Source of the DNA: Candidatus Bathyarchaeota archaeon
GTDB taxonomy: Archaea > Thermoproteota > Bathyarchaeia > RBG-16-48-13 > GCA-020355125
Reading direction: 5' to 3'
NCBI GenBank assembly: GCA_026014905.1
Contig: JAOZHK010000219.1
Location: 1-6,608 of the forward strand
Length of the DNA: 6,608 nt
In this document: in pieces, positions 1 through 6,608 of the stretch
How positions within the stretch are numbered: the stretch's first letter is position 1
How the letters are laid out: every line of letters starts with the position of its first letter
The notes under the pieces: model-generated
The model's database searches: none
Seen by the model: the letters and a program-made list of their open reading frames with translations, nothing else
Told to the model about the DNA's origin: nothing
Made by a program: the position numbers and the translations under genes

Positions 1-228
1 CGAGTAAACATGAATGTTTATACAACGGGGCGGGATCTCCAGAATCTCGGAGTCTTTCCTCTCCACGATATGCTCCCAGAAACCGCCGTTATAAAGATGA
101 TGTGGGCTTTTGGTCAAACACAAAACATCCCGAAAGTAAAAGACATCTTGTTGACAAACATAGCGGGAGAGATAGAAACTCGAAGTCAATTTCAACATTT
201 CAATCCCTGTGAGATGAATAAAGTGTGA
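1..228 (+). CDS. gatD: Glu-tRNA(Gln) amidotransferase subunit D, C-terminal end (partial)
   Basis: This is the last 75 codons of a gene that begins before the window; the frame is open from base 1 and ends at TGA 226-228. The residues match the C-terminus of archaeal GatD, an L-asparaginase-like subunit. Visible landmarks are GRDLQNLGVFPLHDMLPETA followed by a KMMWAFG segment and the LLTNIAGEIE tail. In the family, GatD hydrolyses glutamine (or asparagine) and passes ammonia to GatE, which amidates Glu-tRNA(Gln) to Gln-tRNA(Gln) in the cytoplasm. The catalytic Thr/Lys/Asp residues lie upstream and cannot be checked. The stop codon overlaps the GTG start of gatE in a GTGA arrangement, so the two subunits are probably made from one transcript by coupled translation. 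The visible part shows no frame break. Identification is firm because of the matching partner directly downstream. Confidence 0.92.
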   Translation, partial: RVNMNVYTTGRDLQNLGVFPLHDMLPETAVIKMMWAFGQTQNIPKVKDILLTNIAGEIETRSQFQHFNPCEMNKV

Positions 229-2169
229 ACAATCGTCAAAAAAATTATCAAAGCATTGGCTTAAGAGTAGGACTCGAAAATTACGCTCCATAGCGAGTGT
301 AATCGAGGAATCCATCAACAACTCAATACAATTCACAAACTCTTTTGCTCATGCACAGCCAACCTCTCAACTCAAGATGCAGAGTTCTCAGTTTATCGCC
401 GACTTCGGCCAACCCAAAGTGAATTAGGTACTGTTGATCCCGCTGCTGCCTTCGAATTCCAGCGAGGCCGAGGTTATGAATACCACGCAGATAACTACTC
501 CACCTGTCTTGTGGAACTTGATGAAGAACCTCCTCACCGTTTAAGCGATGAAGCAATTGATATCGGAATAACAATCGCATTGATGCTCAACGCGCATCCT
601 GTCGACGAAGTCCATGTAATGCGAAAGATTGTAATCGACGGATCAAACACAACAGGGTTTCAAAGAAGCTGTATTTTAGCTCTTGGTGGTGACCTAAAAG
701 TTGACCACCATCCTATTCAACTACATACTATATGCCTAGAAGAAGATGCTGCCAGGAAAATTAATGAAACCTCATCAATCACGACATACCGTCTTGACCG
801 GTTATGCATACCTCTCATCGAAGTCACTACAGCGCCAGTTATCTATAGCCCTGATGACGCTCAAAAAGTAGCCTTAGCTATAGGCAGAATCTTACGTGCG
901 ACGAACAGAGTAAAAAGAGGTTTAGGCACAATTCGCCAAGATCTGAATATCTCTATTCGTGATGGAGCAATCACAGAGATTAAAGGTGTCCAACAATTAA
1001 ATCTGATCTCTACAGTTGTCAAATATGAAGTTCAGCGCCAACTATCACTTCTAGAGATCCGAGATGAACTGCAATCCCGTGGAGTACATATCGAGGATAT
1101 CTCTGAGAATCTCCACAATATCACCTCGATTTTCAATAAGACTAGAAGCCAACTTATTAAACAAAGCATAAAGCAGGGAGCTCAAGTTTATGCAATAGTA
1201 TTACCTAATTTTAATGATCTTCTAGGTTATGAATTAGCTCCAGGCTTACGATTTGGTACCGAGCTTTCTGATTATGCAAAGTTTTGGGGTCGTGTTGGAG
1301 GAATATTTCACAGCGACGAAATGCCAGCCTATGGAATTACGATTGAAGAAGTATCACAAATTAAACTCAAACTCAATATTCAGACTTCGGATGCCTTCGT
1401 ATTCGTTGCAGCGGATGCTAGTTCCGCGAAGGATGCCTTGTTAGCTGTTATCGCACGAGCACAACAAGCTATTCAAGGGATTCCAGCTGAAACTCGGGGA
1501 GCGACTCTTGATGGGACAACGCATTATTCTCGACCACGTCCAGGAGCAGCGAGAATGTATCCAGAAACTGATGTGCCTCCTGTACCTATCACTTTTCAGA
1601 GATTGGAACGGATTAGAGAAACCCTGCCAGAATCACCAGAGATTCACTTAGCTCGACTACAGGCTGAGTATAATCTGAATGCAAAATTGGCGTCTCAATT
1701 GCAAAATTCCAAGTATAATTTCTTATTTGAACGTATTGCTCGGGAAACGTCAATACCTCCCACTTTCATCGCAGCCACTTTAACTGAAACTTTACGAAGT
1801 TTAAGGCGAGACGGTATTGATGTCGATAGCCTCTCGATGTCATCGCTTTTCACTTTGTTTTCAGTTGTAGATGCTAATCTCGTTGCAAAAGAAGCTATAC
1901 CTCAAGTGCTTCAATGGATGGTAGAACATCACCAACTCGACCCGCATATCGCAATTGAATCCCTTGGCTTAAAATTAATTCCCCTTGAACAACTAGAAGA
2001 CGTGGTTGATGCGGTATTGAATGAAAATCAAAACCTTATAATGACTCGTCAGCAATCTGCGATTGGTCCACTTATGGGCGTTTTAATGAAACAGTATCGG
2101 GGACAAATTGATGCACAAGCACTCAGTCAGTTACTTACCACAAAAATTAAAAAAATGCTAGATCGATAA
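225..2169 (+). CDS. gatE: Glu-tRNA(Gln) amidotransferase subunit E, interrupted by a 31-nt BHB intron: join(225..278,310..2169)
   Basis: GatE phosphorylates the glutamyl end of mischarged Glu-tRNA(Gln) and amidates it with ammonia from GatD. The gene reads as two exons. Exon 1 (GTG 225 to 278) gives 18 residues ending IGLRVGLE. Exon 2 (310 to TAA 2167-2169) gives 619 residues starting IHQQLNT. The joined protein is 637 residues, in the usual GatE size range. Family landmarks in joined numbering: GLEIHQQL across the junction (residues 16-23), RRLRPTQSELG (48-58), CLVELDEEPPH (84-94), RGLGTIRQDLNISIR (221-235), EIKGVQQLNLI (241-251), a GAD-type insert at about 300-420 (absent from bacterial GatB), YPETDVPP (435-442), and a helical/YqeY-like tail at about 480-637. 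GTG 225 is chosen because it overlaps the gatD stop and sits just before the conserved IGLRVGLE; an in-frame TAA lies at 219-221. The reading frame from 310 alone has no start until GTG 511, which would lose 85 conserved residues. That the gene is gatE is near certain; the join rests on homology and RNA structure. Confidence 0.93.
279..309 (+). other. Archaeal bulge-helix-bulge (BHB) intron in gatE pre-mRNA
   Basis: Thirty-one bases separate GLE (GAA 276-278) from IHQQL (ATC 310-312) and change the frame. With their flanks they form a canonical BHB. Outer helix: GGA 270-272 with TCC 311-313. Central helix, 4 bp: CTCG 273-276 with CGAG 304-307. Bulge 1: AAA 277-279. Bulge 2: GAA 308-310. Inner helix, 9 bp with one G-U: ATTACGCTC 280-288 with GAGTGTAAT 295-303. 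Hexaloop: 289-294. EndA-type splicing endonucleases cut after the second nucleotide of each 3-nt bulge, here 278|279 and 309|310. That removes exactly 31 nt and joins GAA to ATC in phase 0. If retained, the intron brings TAG 291-293 into frame. A competing fold pairs A277 with T303 (5-bp central helix, bulge 278-280) and would give a frame-breaking 30-nt excision, so the 4-bp register is the productive one. Structure and protein homology predict the same junction independently. Splicing itself is inferred. Confidence 0.88.
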
Positions 2170-2252: not shown

Positions 2253-3248
2253 ATGGTAACGTTGAAAGAAGCCGCGAAAAAATACGTCTACGGTTACAAT
2301 AAGACCGCGGTTTTTGCTGTTACCACACAGTGTAATTGCCAATGCCTGATGTGTGATATACATCGAAAAAAATCTGAAATGATTCCACTTGAAGATGCCA
2401 AAAAAATTCTGGATATATTAGTACAAAATAAGTTTCTCGTGGTTTACTTCACTGGTGGAGAGCCAACTCTTCATCCCCAAATTGTGGACATCGTGAAATA
2501 TGCTGACGATCAGGGACTCGTTGCCACAATGACCACTAATGGTACTGCAAATCATTATCTCCTTTATAAACTAAAACAAGCGGGATTATATCTGCTAAGT
2601 GTCTCACTGGATCACTGGGATCCCGCGATTTGTGAACAACTTCGACAACATCGTAAGATCATGGAGAAACAGGTGCAGACTATTCAATATCTGAAAAAAA
2701 TCGGGTTAAAAACATATGCGCTTGCTTACTTAAACCCACATCTAGTTGATGAAGGTGTTGAAAAACTAGTTGCTTATGTGAACAATGTGTTAAAAGTACC
2801 GTTTGGTTTCTGTTACCCAACAACTAGTGATATCAATTCCTATTCTTTAGGTGGAGTCTTTTCAGATAAGCAAGTATCTCATAAACTTGATAAAAGTGTC
2901 AAAAAGATATTACAATCGAAAATTACTGGGGCAAGCATAGCGAATCTCTGGGTCTACCTTCAAGATATCCTGACATTCACGGATCAAAAAAACCCCCACT
3001 TCTTCTGTCGAGGGGGTGAAGATGTCGTTTATATTGATTGGCGAGGAGATGTTTTTCCATGTTTCCTAAAACCCAAGATATTTAACATGCTCCACGATCC
3101 TCCAAGATTTCTTAATAATGTGAAATGTAATGATTGTTTAATCAATTGCTTTCGCGAACCCTCTGTGCTTCCACATTTCCTGTCAGCCCCCCATCTATTA
3201 GCTATGGAAATACTTCATTCCCGATCTGAACGATGGGTGTATGGATAA
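2253..3248 (+). CDS. Radical SAM protein with SPASM-like C-terminal cysteine cluster
   Basis: A 331-residue protein. Radical SAM enzymes use a [4Fe-4S] cluster to cleave S-adenosylmethionine and start radical chemistry. The CxxxCxxC motif is C27, C31, C34 in TTQCNCQCLMCD, with an extra C29. The SAM-binding GGEP motif is at 68-71 (YFTGGEPTLHP); strands with TTNGT (94-98) and SVSLDH (116-121) continue the partial TIM barrel. At the C-terminus C252, G265-x4-C270 and C292-x2-C295-x3-C299 form a SPASM/twitch-like set able to hold one or more auxiliary Fe-S clusters. SPASM proteins commonly modify peptides or proteins, but no substrate or partner gene can be identified here, so the reaction is unknown. 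There is no signal peptide or membrane segment. ATG 2253 is used because an in-frame TGA lies at 2229-2231; a GGAG at 2237-2240 is a somewhat distant ribosome site. The gene starts 83 bases after gatE and may share its transcript. Confidence 0.88.
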   Translation: MVTLKEAAKKYVYGYNKTAVFAVTTQCNCQCLMCDIHRKKSEMIPLEDAKKILDILVQNKFLVVYFTGGEPTLHPQIVDIVKYADDQGLVATMTTNGTANHYLLYKLKQAGLYLLSVSLDHWDPAICEQLRQHRKIMEKQVQTIQYLKKIGLKTYALAYLNPHLVDEGVEKLVAYVNNVLKVPFGFCYPTTSDINSYSLGGVFSDKQVSHKLDKSVKKILQSKITGASIANLWVYLQDILTFTDQKNPHFFCRGGEDVVYIDWRGDVFPCFLKPKIFNMLHDPPRFLNNVKCNDCLINCFREPSVLPHFLSAPHLLAMEILHSRSERWVYG

Positions 3249-3401: not shown

Positions 3402-3665
3402 GTGCCATATATAAAAGCTGAGAAACGCAGATTATATGATAACGGCATTGAGCAACTTGTGAAGATCTTAGAACAACAGCCATTAATGGAAGTAGACGGA
3501 GATTTGAATTACATCGTCACAAGTATCTGTAAGAAATTGTATGCTCCGAAATACTTCAATTATAATCGAGCGATAGGCGTTCTCGAAGCTATTAAACAGG
3601 AATTTTACCGACGAGTTGTCGCACCATATGAAGATACAAAAATCGTGGAGAACGGCGATGTGTAA
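3402..3665 (+). CDS. Small conserved protein of unknown function (87 residues)
   Basis: An 87-residue protein starting at GTG 3402 behind a complete Shine-Dalgarno site and ending at TAA 3663-3665. It begins MPYIKAEKR, has a central GDLNYIVTSI segment, and ends with YRRVVAPYEDTKIVENGDV. From memory, this arrangement (MPYI start, G-[DE]-LNY core, YRR...PYED...ENGDV end) belongs to a family of small uncharacterised proteins found in archaea, bacteria and phages; the family name cannot be confirmed here. The composition is soluble and mostly helical, with no signal peptide, membrane segment or cysteine cluster (one Cys). The gene stands 153 bases after the radical SAM gene with its own TATA box, and is convergent with ppdK. 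The preserved PYED/ENGDV tail suggests a constrained function, but none can be assigned. Confidence 0.85.
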   Translation: MPYIKAEKRRLYDNGIEQLVKILEQQPLMEVDGDLNYIVTSICKKLYAPKYFNYNRAIGVLEAIKQEFYRRVVAPYEDTKIVENGDV

Positions 3666-3718
3666 CTGCGACGCGCGCTGGCTTTCATACATCAAGCTAG
3701 TTATCAGATAAAGAAGGG

Positions 3719-3740
3719 AATCAGACTAAAAAGTCGGATT
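3719..3740 (-). terminator. Probable terminator hairpin between convergent genes
   Basis: AATCAGACT (3719-3727) pairs with AGTCGGATT (3732-3740) around an AAAA loop with one A-G mismatch. The hairpin overlaps the ppdK stop codon. On the minus strand it holds a run of five T (3728-3732) just past the stop, followed by a pyrimidine-rich CCCTTCTTT (3710-3718), fitting archaeal T-tract termination of ppdK. It may also block transcripts from the plus-strand gene ending at 3665. Confidence 0.45.
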
Positions 3741-6354
3741 AGGCTTTTAGCTTTGCTTGCGCAGCCGCGAGTATGGCAATCGGCACTCTGAAAGGCGAAG
3801 AGCTCACGTTTGATAAGCCGATCTGATGGCAGAACTTAACGCTCTCCGGATCACCGCCATGTTCCCCGCATATCCCGATGTCCATGTCCGGTTTCACGCT
3901 CCTTGCCTTCTCGACCGTGATCCTCATCATCTCCCCGACACCGGGCTTGTCAATACTTTGGAATGGGTCCTTGTTGAAGATGCCCATCTCCAGATACCTG
4001 TTTATGAATTTGCCCACATCGTCCCTGGAGAACCCGAGGGTGGTCTGAGTCAGATCATTGGTTCCGAAGCTCATGAACTCCACTTCCTTCGCGAGAATAT
4101 CGGCGGTCAGGGCAGCCCGCGGGAACTCTATCATGCTCCCAATGTGATAGGTGACCTGTCCCTCTGCGCCTGTATCCTTCGCGGCCTTCTTGATGATGTC
4201 TCTGATGAAGCGGTACTCCTCTATGGAGATTATGTTCGGCACTTCTATCATGGGCATCGGATTCAGGCCCTCATTCTTGAGCTGCAGGGCAGCCTGGAAT
4301 ATTGCAGTCGCCTGCATCTCGCTGACTTCCGGATAAACGACCCCGACTCTGCATCCTCTGAATCCAAGCATGGGGTTGAATTCATGCAGTTGTTGTATCC
4401 TCTCTTTGATTTTCTCCACTGGCACTTTGATTATGCCAGAGAGCTTTGTGATCTCCTTGTCCTCCTTTGGCAGAAACTCGTGCAAAGGAGGGTCAAGCAG
4501 CCTGACAATAACTGGCAATCCGTCCATGCCCCTCAATATTCCGATGAAGTCCTCCCTCTGGTATGGAAGTAGTTTGGTCAAAGCCTTCCTCCTAGCCTCC
4601 TCGTCGTCCGCAAGTATCATCTCCCTCATGGAGTTTATCCTCTCCGGCTCGAAGAACATGTGCTCCGTCCTGCAGAGGCCAATCCCTTCAGCCCCGAAAT
4701 TCCTAGCCACAGCAGCGTCATGCGGTGTATCCGCGTTGGCCAGTACTCCAAGTCTCTTCACACCCTGGGCCCATCCCATTAGTATCCCGAAGTCTCCGGT
4801 CATCTCCGGGTCGATGACATTCAACTGTCCTATGTATACCTCGCCAGTCGTACCGTCCAATGTAAGGTAGTCTCCCTCCTTAACCTCTGTCCCTCCGATC
4901 CTAGCGGTTTTCTTCTTTTCGTCAATTATCAAATCTTGGCATCCCGCCACGCAACACTTGCCCATACCCCTTGCGACGACCGCAGCATGGGACGTCATTC
5001 CTCCCCTGGCAGTCAGGAACCCTTCAGCGGCGTTCATGCCTTCGATATCCTCCGGGGAGGTCTCCAGCCTTACAAGGACCACATCCTCTCCCCTCTCTTT
5101 CCATTCCGTTGCCTCCTCTGCAGTGAACACGACTTTTCCCACAGCTGCTCCTGGAGATGCGGGCAGTCCTTTTGCGTTCGCTGTGTTCGCACTCTTGTCT
5201 GTAGGGTCGAGCCTCTTGTGGAGGAGCTGGATGAGCTTCGAGGGCTCTATCCTCATCAAAGCCTGCTCTTGTGTTATCAATTTCTCCTTCACCATATCAA
5301 CTGCTATCTTCACGTCCGCAACTCCGGTCCTCTTACCGGTCCTGGTCTGCAGCATGTAGAGCTTTCCTTGTTGGATGGTGAACTCCACGTCCTGCATGTC
5401 CTTGTAGTGGTTCTCCAGTATCTCGCGGATGTCCAACAACTGCTTAAATATCTCAGGCATCTTCTTGTCAAGCTCGTCAATGGACCTTGGTGTGCGTGTG
5501 CCAGCGACTACGTCCTCTCCCTGAGCGTTATAGAGGAATTCTCCATAGAACTTGTTCTCGCCCGTGCTGGGGTTCCTTGTGAACGCCACTCCAGTCGCAG
5601 AGTCGTCACCCATGTTGCCGAATACCATCGTCTGTACATTTACAGCTGTTCCGAGCAAGCCTTTGATGTTGTTTATCCTCCTGTAGGATATCGCCCTTGG
5701 ATTGTCCCAGGAACCAAAAACAGCATCAATAGCCATCTGCAGCTGCACTTTGATGTCTTGGGGGAACTCTTTTCCAGCATACTTCTTCACAATCTGCTTG
5801 TACTCCTTTACCAAGTCCTTCAATGCCTTCACATCCACTTCAGTATCATACTTCCATCCCTTCTTCTCCTTCACCTTCTGAAGGGCATGCTCGAAGTGCT
5901 CCCTCTTCACTCCCATCACGACATCCCCGAACATTGTTATCAATCGTCTGTAGGCATCCCATGCGAACCTCTCGTTGTTCATCTTCGCAATGAGGCCGTT
6001 GATGGTCTGGTCGTTCAATCCGAGGTTCAATACTGTGTCCATCATCCCCGGCATGCTGATGGCAGCCCCGCTTCTGACAGAAACCAGCAAAGGATTGTTA
6101 ACGTCACCAAACTTCATACCCATGGTCTCCTCCAGCTTTACAACATTCTCCTCGACCTGGGTGTTCATCTCGTCAGGATACACCTTGTTGTTCTTAATGT
6201 AATAGTCGCAGACTTCAGTGCTTATGGTGAAGCCAGGTGGAATTGGGAGTCCAAGCTTGGTCATCTCGCCAAGGTTTGCCCCTTTGCCTCCTAGAAGCTG
6301 TTTGTTCTTTGTATCCCCTTCACCGAAAGTGTAAACGTATTTTTCGCTGCTCAA
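3739..6354 (-). CDS. ppdK: Pyruvate, phosphate dikinase
   Basis: An 871-residue, full-length enzyme (the family is usually about 870-880) that interconverts pyruvate + ATP + phosphate with phosphoenolpyruvate + AMP + diphosphate. It is cytosolic and links pyruvate to gluconeogenesis or works in PPi-dependent glycolysis. The N-terminal ATP-grasp half (about 1-345) starts with LLGGKGANLGEM and contains VSVRSGAAISMPGMMDTVLN. The swivelling phosphohistidine domain (about 390-510) has GGMTSHAAVVARGMGK, with the phosphorylated His at 456. The C-terminal PEP/pyruvate TIM barrel has GLCRTEHMFF (559-568), RLLDPPLHEF (618-627), GSMIEFPRAA (739-748), FGTNDLTQ (763-770) and GICGEHGGDP with the acid/base Cys at 829. 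All expected catalytic residues are present. The start is TTG (6354-6352): an in-frame TGA lies eight codons before it, no ATG or GTG is available between, and GAGG (6366-6363 on the minus strand) is 8 nt upstream. The gene is visibly richer in G+C than gatE and the radical SAM gene. Confidence 0.96.
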   Translation of the reverse strand: MSSEKYVYTFGEGDTKNKQLLGGKGANLGEMTKLGLPIPPGFTISTEVCDYYIKNNKVYPDEMNTQVEENVVKLEETMGMKFGDVNNPLLVSVRSGAAISMPGMMDTVLNLGLNDQTINGLIAKMNNERFAWDAYRRLITMFGDVVMGVKREHFEHALQKVKEKKGWKYDTEVDVKALKDLVKEYKQIVKKYAGKEFPQDIKVQLQMAIDAVFGSWDNPRAISYRRINNIKGLLGTAVNVQTMVFGNMGDDSATGVAFTRNPSTGENKFYGEFLYNAQGEDVVAGTRTPRSIDELDKKMPEIFKQLLDIREILENHYKDMQDVEFTIQQGKLYMLQTRTGKRTGVADVKIAVDMVKEKLITQEQALMRIEPSKLIQLLHKRLDPTDKSANTANAKGLPASPGAAVGKVVFTAEEATEWKERGEDVVLVRLETSPEDIEGMNAAEGFLTARGGMTSHAAVVARGMGKCCVAGCQDLIIDEKKKTARIGGTEVKEGDYLTLDGTTGEVYIGQLNVIDPEMTGDFGILMGWAQGVKRLGVLANADTPHDAAVARNFGAEGIGLCRTEHMFFEPERINSMREMILADDEEARRKALTKLLPYQREDFIGILRGMDGLPVIVRLLDPPLHEFLPKEDKEITKLSGIIKVPVEKIKERIQQLHEFNPMLGFRGCRVGVVYPEVSEMQATAIFQAALQLKNEGLNPMPMIEVPNIISIEEYRFIRDIIKKAAKDTGAEGQVTYHIGSMIEFPRAALTADILAKEVEFMSFGTNDLTQTTLGFSRDDVGKFINRYLEMGIFNKDPFQSIDKPGVGEMMRITVEKARSVKPDMDIGICGEHGGDPESVKFCHQIGLSNVSSSPFRVPIAILAAAQAKLKA

Positions 6355-6413
6355 ATTGTATGCCTCATATGTCGTCTGTCAAAACGTGTCTTTTCGACTT
6401 TACATTCAGAGTT

Positions 6414-6422
6414 GAATATAAA
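6414..6422 (-). promoter_or_regulatory. Probable TATA box for ppdK
   Basis: On the minus strand the sequence reads TTTATATTC. It is centred about 64 bases before the TTG start, which predicts a leader of about 38 nt carrying the GAGG ribosome site at 6366-6363. It lies in the 105-base gap between the PIN gene stop and ppdK, so ppdK probably has its own promoter. Confidence 0.5.
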
Positions 6423-6459
6423 GAAATCGGTTATTTTTGAAAGGAGGCGATGATTAAGC

Positions 6460-6608
6460 CTATCGAAAAACGCCTATTCGCGATCTCTGTCTGATAAAAA
6501 TCACTGGAATACCTGCTTTTCTTAAGGTTTTTCTCAGTTCTTTATCATTTGTAGCGATATAACATTGGTTGTTTTGAGCGTAGGTTGTTATCGTTTGGTC
6601 AACGTCAT
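6460..6608 (-). CDS. PIN-domain protein of the Fcf1/VapC9 type, C-terminal end (partial)
   Basis: On the minus strand an open frame enters from the window edge and stops at TAG (6462-6460), giving 48 complete residues. It reads DVDQTITTYAQ, then CYIATNDKELRKTLRKAGIP, then VIFIRQRSRIGVFR. The pattern 'D-D...A...IATND.ELR..LR..GIPVI.LR' is typical of the end of archaeal PIN-domain nucleases related to Fcf1/Utp24 and VapC9. The Asp of TND is one of the acidic metal-binding residues. Such proteins are single-domain, Mg/Mn-dependent ribonucleases of about 130-150 residues, with roles in rRNA processing or as toxins. The first two-thirds lies outside the window, so the other catalytic acids and any antitoxin neighbour cannot be checked. 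It precedes ppdK on the same strand with a 105-base gap. Confidence 0.75.
   Translation of the reverse strand, partial: DVDQTITTYAQNNQCYIATNDKELRKTLRKAGIPVIFIRQRSRIGVFR

What the first reader, a model, noticed from the sequence alone, without database searches (positions are those of the whole stretch)
270..313. A 31-nt bulge-helix-bulge intron inside the protein-coding gene gatE
The GatE frame breaks between two halves of its most conserved N-terminal motif (GLE|IHQQL). The 31-nt interruption and its flanks form a canonical BHB: outer 3 bp (270-272/311-313), 3-nt bulge 308-310, central 4 bp (273-276/304-307), 3-nt bulge 277-279, inner 9 bp (280-288/295-303), loop 289-294. Standard cleavage after the second bulge nucleotide at both sites removes 279-309 and restores the motif exactly, in phase 0. 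Known archaeal mRNA introns of this type are rare, cbf5 being the classic case; I recall none in a tRNA-amidotransferase gene. A chance insertion would not be expected to meet both the structural and the frame requirement.
Basis: partly seen in the sequence, partly recalled or inferred. Interest (0 to 1): 0.93.

Follow-up and report, generated by a model that had tools for sequence, protein, structure and literature searches.

The report
Spliced mini-intron in archaeal gatE
In a group of uncultured archaea the gene gatE, which encodes a subunit of an enzyme likely needed to make glutamine-charged tRNA, is interrupted by a 31-base insert that is predicted to fold like a tRNA intron and to be cut out of the messenger RNA by the tRNA-splicing enzymes, something that the papers we found report as confirmed inside only one other archaeal protein gene.

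Summary
In the window, gatE breaks between GLE (exon 1, 225-278) and IHQQL (exon 2, 310-2169). The 31-nt insert 279-309 and its flanks can fold as a canonical bulge-helix-bulge (BHB). It is no assembly error: five of 256 genomes in the class of relative G001 carry a 32-nt insert at the same codon boundary (GatE 56-60% identical over its main part), and two further relatives read an insert in frame as a false N-terminus. The exon-encoded helix letters GGACTCGAA occur in 7 of 7 intron copies but 1 of 102 intron-less loci. Three of the genomes carry a second, 28-nt BHB-like insert at VEAD|EEPPH; protein P0133 of the same clade has the predicted joined sequence there. Joined products are 636-637 aa in 6 of 6 built. 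EndA is encoded in 7 and RtcB in 6 of 7 relatives checked. No other interrupted gene appeared in 304 compared regions, and cbf5 is open in the 5 of 7 genomes with a good match. A 2020 paper names cbf5 as the only earlier coding-gene case. New member of a known kind, with two intron sites in one gene and another lineage.

The parts
1..228 (+). C-terminal end of gatD, just upstream; its TGA stop (226-228) overlaps the GTG start of gatE exon 1 (225-227)
   Evidence: NCBIfam GatD models NF003217 and TIGR02153, E 6e-22 and 1e-21; sequence
225..278 (+). gatE exon 1: VNNRQKNYQSIGLRVGLE, from GTG to the GAA codon
   Evidence: Lines up with the N-terminus of intron-less GatE; exon 1 of relatives has dN below dS in four pairs
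279..309 (+). predicted BHB intron, 31 nt, phase 0
   Evidence: Fold and BHB scan; insert at the same site in G001, G002, G003, G217, G218
310..2169 (+). gatE exon 2: IHQQL... to the stop
   Evidence: NF003107 GatE 812 bits, profile 17-628 of 630
270..272 (+). outer helix 5' strand (GGA), pairs with 311-313
311..313 (+). outer helix 3' strand (TCC)
273..276 (+). central 4-bp helix 5' strand (CTCG), exon-encoded, pairs with 304-307
   Evidence: GGACTCGAA in 7 of 7 intron copies against 1 of 102 intron-less loci
304..307 (+). central helix 3' strand (CGAG), intron-encoded
   Evidence: invariant in 7 copies
277..279 (+). 5' bulge (AAA); predicted cut after 278
308..310 (+). 3' bulge (GAA); predicted cut after 309
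280..303 (+). inner helix 280-288/295-303 with loop 289-294
   Evidence: across 7 copies one pair changed on both sides and one shows three pair types plus a mismatch
291..293 (+). TAG stop that ends the exon-1 frame inside the insert
   Evidence: sequence
268..270 (+). TAG that closes the exon-2 frame upstream; that frame has no ATG, GTG or TTG from 271 to 510, so an unspliced message has its first ordinary start for it at GTG 511

Best explanation
The 31 bases at 279-309 are predicted to fold, with their flanks, into a canonical bulge-helix-bulge inside the coding sequence of gatE, and are likely an intron that the tRNA-splicing endonuclease EndA would cut out of the gatD-gatE mRNA after bases 278 and 309, after which the ligase RtcB would probably join the exons. 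Shown: the complementary letters, the interruption, the restored frame, the conservation of site and helix letters in related genomes, selection on exon 1 in relatives, a second BHB-like insert in the same gene in some relatives, and genes for EndA and RtcB in relatives. Inferred: transcription as one mRNA, cleavage, ligation, and that only spliced mRNA gives full-length GatE. The intron was probably gained once in this group of Bathyarchaeia and lost cleanly in at least one branch; the trees do not settle this.
For: Structure; rarity. Insert at the same site in G001 (two copies), G002, G003, G217, G218 (DNA), that is 5 of 256 class genomes by covariance model; five of the six copies that trained the model are from these genomes and match by construction, so its only new find is the second G001 copy. 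Inserts of 31 (window) and 32 nt; joined proteins 636-637 aa in 6 of 6 built. P0011 and P0017 read an insert in frame as an N-terminus ending NRG|IHQQL; deduced lengths 31 and 37 nt (my reading of protein letters). In G217 and G218 a TAA lies directly before IHQQL, so no upstream start can serve exon 2. Exon 1 dN/dS 0.05-0.24 in 4 pairs. GGACTCGAA in 7 of 7 intron copies, 1 of 102 intron-less loci, which use 45 spellings. Second insert of 28 nt in L013, L016, L024 (scan hit in L013); its 3' half is read as ASGLN or ATGLN before EEPPH in 8 of 19 proteins read, while P0133 of the same clade reads VEADEEPPH without it. EndA matches in 7 of 7 genomes, at least two in 6; in G219 one paralog looks catalytic and one structural. 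RtcB in 6 of 7.
Against: No RNA or protein data. Covariation is weak: 1 of 16 pairs changed on both sides and 53 of 500 shuffles reach the observed score, because the outer and central helices never vary. The 6 other DNA copies have a 4-nt 3' bulge, where the cut that restores GLE|IH lies after the third bulge base (or an equivalent slid joint), not the second. The second G001 copy has an A-C mismatch in the inner helix, and its exon 1 differs from the first copy's by 2 nonsynonymous and 0 synonymous codons; the window's own exon 1 had no close DNA relative for such a test. For the second insert the BHB only ties with the best fold of the minimal 41 bases, which leaves the outer helix open; with 24 more bases other folds are better by 3.5-7.5 kcal/mol, and there is no covariation in 3 copies. 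The window's own genome is not held, so its EndA and RtcB were not seen; G003 gave one EndA match and no RtcB.
Confidence: 0.93

Rival explanations
1. The insert is an assembly or sequencing error, or gatE is a decaying pseudogene.
For: A short insert that breaks a frame in one contig.
Against: An insert at the same site in five other genomes and in two read-through proteins; purifying selection on both sides in relatives; exon 2 is full-length.
Confidence: 0.01
2. Translation deals with it: ribosomes hop over the insert or shift frame.
For: A stem-loop follows the GAA codon; hopping over about 50 nt is known from phage T4 gene 60 (recalled).
Against: Hopping uses matching take-off and landing codons (recalled); here the codons before the two exon edges are GAA and GGA in the window, GAA and CAC in L013, GAA and TAA in L090. 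Lengths 31 and 32 would need different frame changes in different relatives.
Confidence: 0.03
3. GatE starts at another codon in this lineage, inside or after the insert, and exon 1 is a relic; the hairpin would be a translational control element.
For: The exon-2 frame is open from 271 in the window, and P0011 and P0017 are database proteins with such starts.
Against: No ATG, GTG or TTG from 271 to 510 in that frame; a stop directly before IHQQL in G217 and G218; exon 1 keeps its GL-[KR]-[IV]-GLE reading with dN below dS in four pairs; it does not explain the second insert further inside the gene.
Confidence: 0.03

Closest known systems
cbf5 pre-mRNA intron of Crenarchaeota (Desulfurococcales, Sulfolobales)
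   Same: BHB-like insert inside a protein-coding gene, cut by EndA, predicted cuts between the second and third bulge bases, with gain and lineage-specific loss (PMC2738675: abstract, passages, conclusion, reference list)
   Different: Different gene and lineage; the cbf5 BHB is unconventional in all but two of the cases that passage names, the window's is canonical; gatE relatives have a second intron site; cbf5 is open in the 5 of 7 genomes here with a match over the cut-off
BHB intron in the 5' UTR of HVO_1309, Haloferax volcanii
   Same: BHB insert in an mRNA, cut by EndA in vitro (PMC7714728, passages only)
   Different: Lies outside the coding sequence; no frame is restored
Archaeal tRNA introns with hBHBh' motif
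   Same: Same structure and size class; PMC7714728 gives a 31-nt intron in H. volcanii tRNA-Gln (passage)
   Different: Here the host RNA is an mRNA
Split Glu-tRNA(Gln) amidotransferase of Nanoarchaeota
   Same: A Glu-tRNA(Gln) amidotransferase protein is listed as split (PMC3655853, table passage; which subunit was not seen)
   Different: Listed there as a split protein with two locus numbers; no intron is mentioned for it in the passages seen

Membership tests
Archaeal BHB introns (EndA substrates) | 4-bp central helix flanked by two 3-nt bulges on opposite strands | tested here: met
   Window. The six other DNA copies have a 4-nt 3' bulge
Archaeal BHB introns (EndA substrates) | Two outer helices of at least two Watson-Crick pairs (hBHBh', definition read) | tested here: met
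   3 pairs on the exon side, 9 (8 Watson-Crick) on the intron side
Archaeal BHB introns (EndA substrates) | Removal after the second bulge base restores a functional exon joint | tested here: met
   GLE|IHQQL restored in the window; joined proteins 636-637 aa in 6 of 6. In the 4-nt-bulge copies the cut must lie one base later
Archaeal BHB introns (EndA substrates) | Cleaved by EndA and ligated | not testable with these tools
   Only the presence of EndA and RtcB genes in relatives
cbf5-type mRNA introns | BHB insert interrupts a coding frame, with presence and absence among relatives | tested here: met
cbf5-type mRNA introns | Located in cbf5 | tested here: not met
   This insert is in gatE; cbf5 is open in 5 of 7 genomes, the other two (G001, G002) gave only weak matches
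Group I or group II introns | Catalytic RNA core, hundreds of bases (recalled) | tested here: not met
   By length only: the insert is 31 nt; Rfam was not run

The most novel reading that the evidence does not exclude
gatE is a hot-spot gene for BHB introns in Bathyarchaeia, with two positions gained and lost separately, and the introns make production of Gln-tRNA(Gln) depend on spare tRNA-splicing capacity: when EndA or RtcB is saturated by pre-tRNA, gatE mRNA stays unspliced and GatE output falls. The two archaeal genes with coding introns, cbf5 and gatE, would then both be tRNA or rRNA maturation genes wired to the splicing machine.
Probability: 0.15. Interest if true: 0.92.

Novelty: new member of a known kind. 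Interest (0 to 1): 0.8.

Why it matters
Since 2002 cbf5 has been the example of a spliced archaeal protein gene; a 2020 paper still calls it the only one besides its own 5' UTR case (PMC7714728, passage). A second gene, in another lineage, with two intron sites, a relative without the second insert, and frozen exon-encoded helix letters, would show that BHB introns can settle and persist in mRNAs, makes gain and loss of non-spliceosomal mRNA introns testable, and warns that gene callers truncate or misread such genes: database GatE entries from this group start late or carry intron-encoded residues.

Tried and rejected
A search for further interrupted genes: 7,307 reference ORFs (all of G219 and other loci without the insert) against 52 target pieces of 405 kb, mainly 252 kb of G217 (20 contigs, each cut at 20 kb) and 104 kb of G001 (20 contigs), gave 304 merged homologous regions (202 kb) outside the gatE loci and no further candidate; the same test with a smaller reference set found the gatE breaks. 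It needs one matched piece of 50 bits and one of 14, so very short exons would be missed, and most of each genome was not compared. A generally intron-rich genome is not supported by this part.

Ribosomal hopping, frameshifting, another start and a pseudogene were considered and set aside (see rivals). G+C rises from about 0.40 to 0.52 near 3.65 kb, so the contig could be chimeric to the right of gatE; gatE lies wholly on the left, after gatD and before a radical SAM gene that is near gatE in relatives too.

Literature: eight searches showed in their listings no report of a gatE intron or of BHB introns in Bathyarchaeota coding genes. Several matched more papers than were listed (96, 230, 41, 1,303 and 25), I read passages of five papers only, and the library holds open-licence papers. 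A ninth search, on GatB metal ligands, gave nothing useful. One search used wrong coordinates for the second G001 copy; one search replaced it.

Full report
What was checked. The window holds the end of gatD (1-228), gatE (225-2169), a radical SAM gene (2253-3248), a DUF6899 gene (3402-3665) and a pyruvate phosphate dikinase gene on the other strand (3739-6354). gatE is broken: exon 1 (225-278) ends GLRVGLE and its frame runs into TAG at 291; exon 2 opens with IHQQL at 310. Exon 2 alone scores 812 bits against the GatE model, profile 17-628 of 630.

The structure. The minimum slides one A-U pair relative to the canonical register (0.8 kcal/mol), so energy does not tell the registers apart. In 1.976 Mb of the relative G219, both strands, in 99 pieces, BHBs with central 4 Watson-Crick pairs, 3-nt bulges, outer at least 3, inner at least 5 and intron up to 60 nt number 390; with inner at least 9 there are 8, and none of these has 3 or more G/C in the central helix.

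Relatives with the insert. Of 80 loci kept from the genome collection (the pattern limit was reached, so there are more), tblastn with the joined protein is one piece from residue 15 or earlier in 76; L025 is cut by its contig end; L013, L016 and L024 are broken. They carry a 32-nt insert at the same GLE|IH boundary. A search of 256 genomes in the class of G001 found a match in 241 (its list of places is capped). Of the 30 loci it gave, L090 and L091 (60% identity) have a 32-nt insert there and 28 are continuous. A covariance model of six copies matches 5 of the 256 genomes, one of them twice; five of its six training copies come from those genomes, so only the second G001 copy (L191) is a new find. 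In an even sample of 398 genomes of the phylum only G001 itself matches. Stricter filters were used in both, so weak copies may be missed.

Proteins as witnesses. The seven closest proteins of 95-98% identity besides the window's own begin at residue 68 of exon 2, as expected if gene callers cannot cross the insert. P0011 (79%) and P0017 (63%) instead start in an insert: their N-termini end NRG|IHQQL, which is how the window's insert reads in the exon-2 frame (CGA GGA ATC). By back-reading, their inserts would be 31 and 37 nt. This is deduced from protein letters only.

Why splicing rather than translation tricks. Lengths 31 and 32 put the exons in different relative frames, yet the six joined proteins built are 636-637 aa. 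In G217 and G218 a stop codon directly precedes IHQQL. Exon 1 evolves under purifying selection in four pairs (dN/dS 0.079/0.508, 0.051/0.216, 0.079/0.508 and 0.024/0.458; only 17-18 codons each); against this, the two G001 copies differ in exon 1 by 2 nonsynonymous and no synonymous codons. The codons before the two exon edges do not match, as hopping would need. The exon letters GGACTCGAA, which make one strand of the outer helix and of the central helix, are the same in 7 of 7 intron copies, whereas 102 intron-less loci (85 distinct 24-mers; 3 loci without the motif were dropped) use 45 spellings and this one only once, in L020.

Limits of the structural evidence. On seven copies 97.3% of 112 cells pair, against 24-39% when partners are slid; but one pair changed on both sides, 53 of 500 shuffles reach the covariation score, and the outer and central helices never vary. 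The evidence is conservation more than covariation. The six copies other than the window's have a 4-nt 3' bulge; there the frame demands a joint one base later. The (alpha-beta)2 EndA found mainly in the TACK superphylum is reported to accept various bulge lengths (PMC7714728, passage). EndA matches are present in 7 of 7 genomes checked and at least two in 6; in G219 one paralog keeps the residues I recall as catalytic (Tyr, His, Lys) and the other lacks the His. RtcB is present in 6 of 7.

A second insert. L013, L016 and L024 also break at VEAD|EEPPH by 28 nt, which can form outer 3 bp, central 4 bp, two 3-nt bulges and an inner helix; cuts after the second bulge bases restore GAC GAA GAA, in L024 GAC GAG GAA. 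The BHB ties with the best fold of the minimal 41 bases, which leaves the outer helix open; longer context prefers other folds by 3.5-7.5 kcal/mol. All pairs hold in three copies with no covariation. A protein search with the L013 downstream exon put a run of late-starting entries on top. Of the 19 I read, eight (P0121, which is L013's own protein, P0122, P0124, P0129, P0130, P0132, P0134, P0147) show ASGLN or ATGLN before EEPPH, the read-through of the insert's 3' half; eight start after the site and say nothing; P0140 and P0149 have a shorter likeness (PGLN, PGLH); and P0133 reads CLVEADEEPPH without any insert. On the tree P0133 lies inside the clade and P0140 with P0149 outside it; the labels need three changes for the second intron and two for the first, with unknown rows left out (an earlier tree with other rows is). 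The DNA pattern for GLNEEPPH hits 3 of 256 class genomes, the same three, and only G001 in the phylum sample of 398. The window has no second insert (511-537 is continuous).

Elsewhere in the genomes. cbf5 is open in the 5 of 7 genomes with a match over the cut-off, three of them with the gatE insert. No other interrupted gene appeared in 304 regions. So gatE stands out in what was compared.

What is known. Yokobori et al. 2009 (PMC2738675: abstract, passages, conclusion and reference list read) describe the cbf5 intron, its gain and loss, and say that introns in other protein genes had been predicted but not confirmed. PMC7714728 (2020; passages) says that to date only the cbf5 mRNA had another BHB intron. 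The passages seen of PMC12397907 and PMC13149111 add no further coding gene. The searches are named in Tried and rejected. That the E and H of GLEIH bind metal in the related GatB is recalled, not checked; if right, the intron splits the active site, as cbf5's lies in the codon of the catalytic aspartate.

Verdict. A BHB intron in a coding sequence, real and conserved as a sequence feature; splicing inferred at 0.93. New member of a known kind, of high interest because the kind had one confirmed coding-gene member in the papers found.

Noticed in passing
window 3600-6608: G+C rises from about 0.40 to about 0.52 near 3.65 kb, where the pyruvate phosphate dikinase gene begins; that gene has only one, weak match (24% identity) in the loci fetched here. 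Recent transfer or a chimeric contig are both possible.
   Followed up: partly
window 2253-3248: A radical SAM gene follows gatE; homologs (59-63% identity) lie directly after gatE in L090, L091, L001 and L089 and about 2.3 kb after it in L013 and L016, so the neighbourhood is shared by intron-bearing and intron-less relatives.
   Followed up: partly
L191 1507-1556 (G001 contig C104): The same genome bin holds a second, slightly different gatE start with the same insert, probably a strain variant; its inner helix has an A-C mismatch.
   Followed up: partly
P0140, P0149 (proteins, no locus): Two proteins outside the L013 clade begin MAFSPGLNEEPPH or MAFSPGLHEEPPH, as if they too had an insert at the second site; a separate gain or a chance start cannot be told apart without DNA.
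   Followed up: partly
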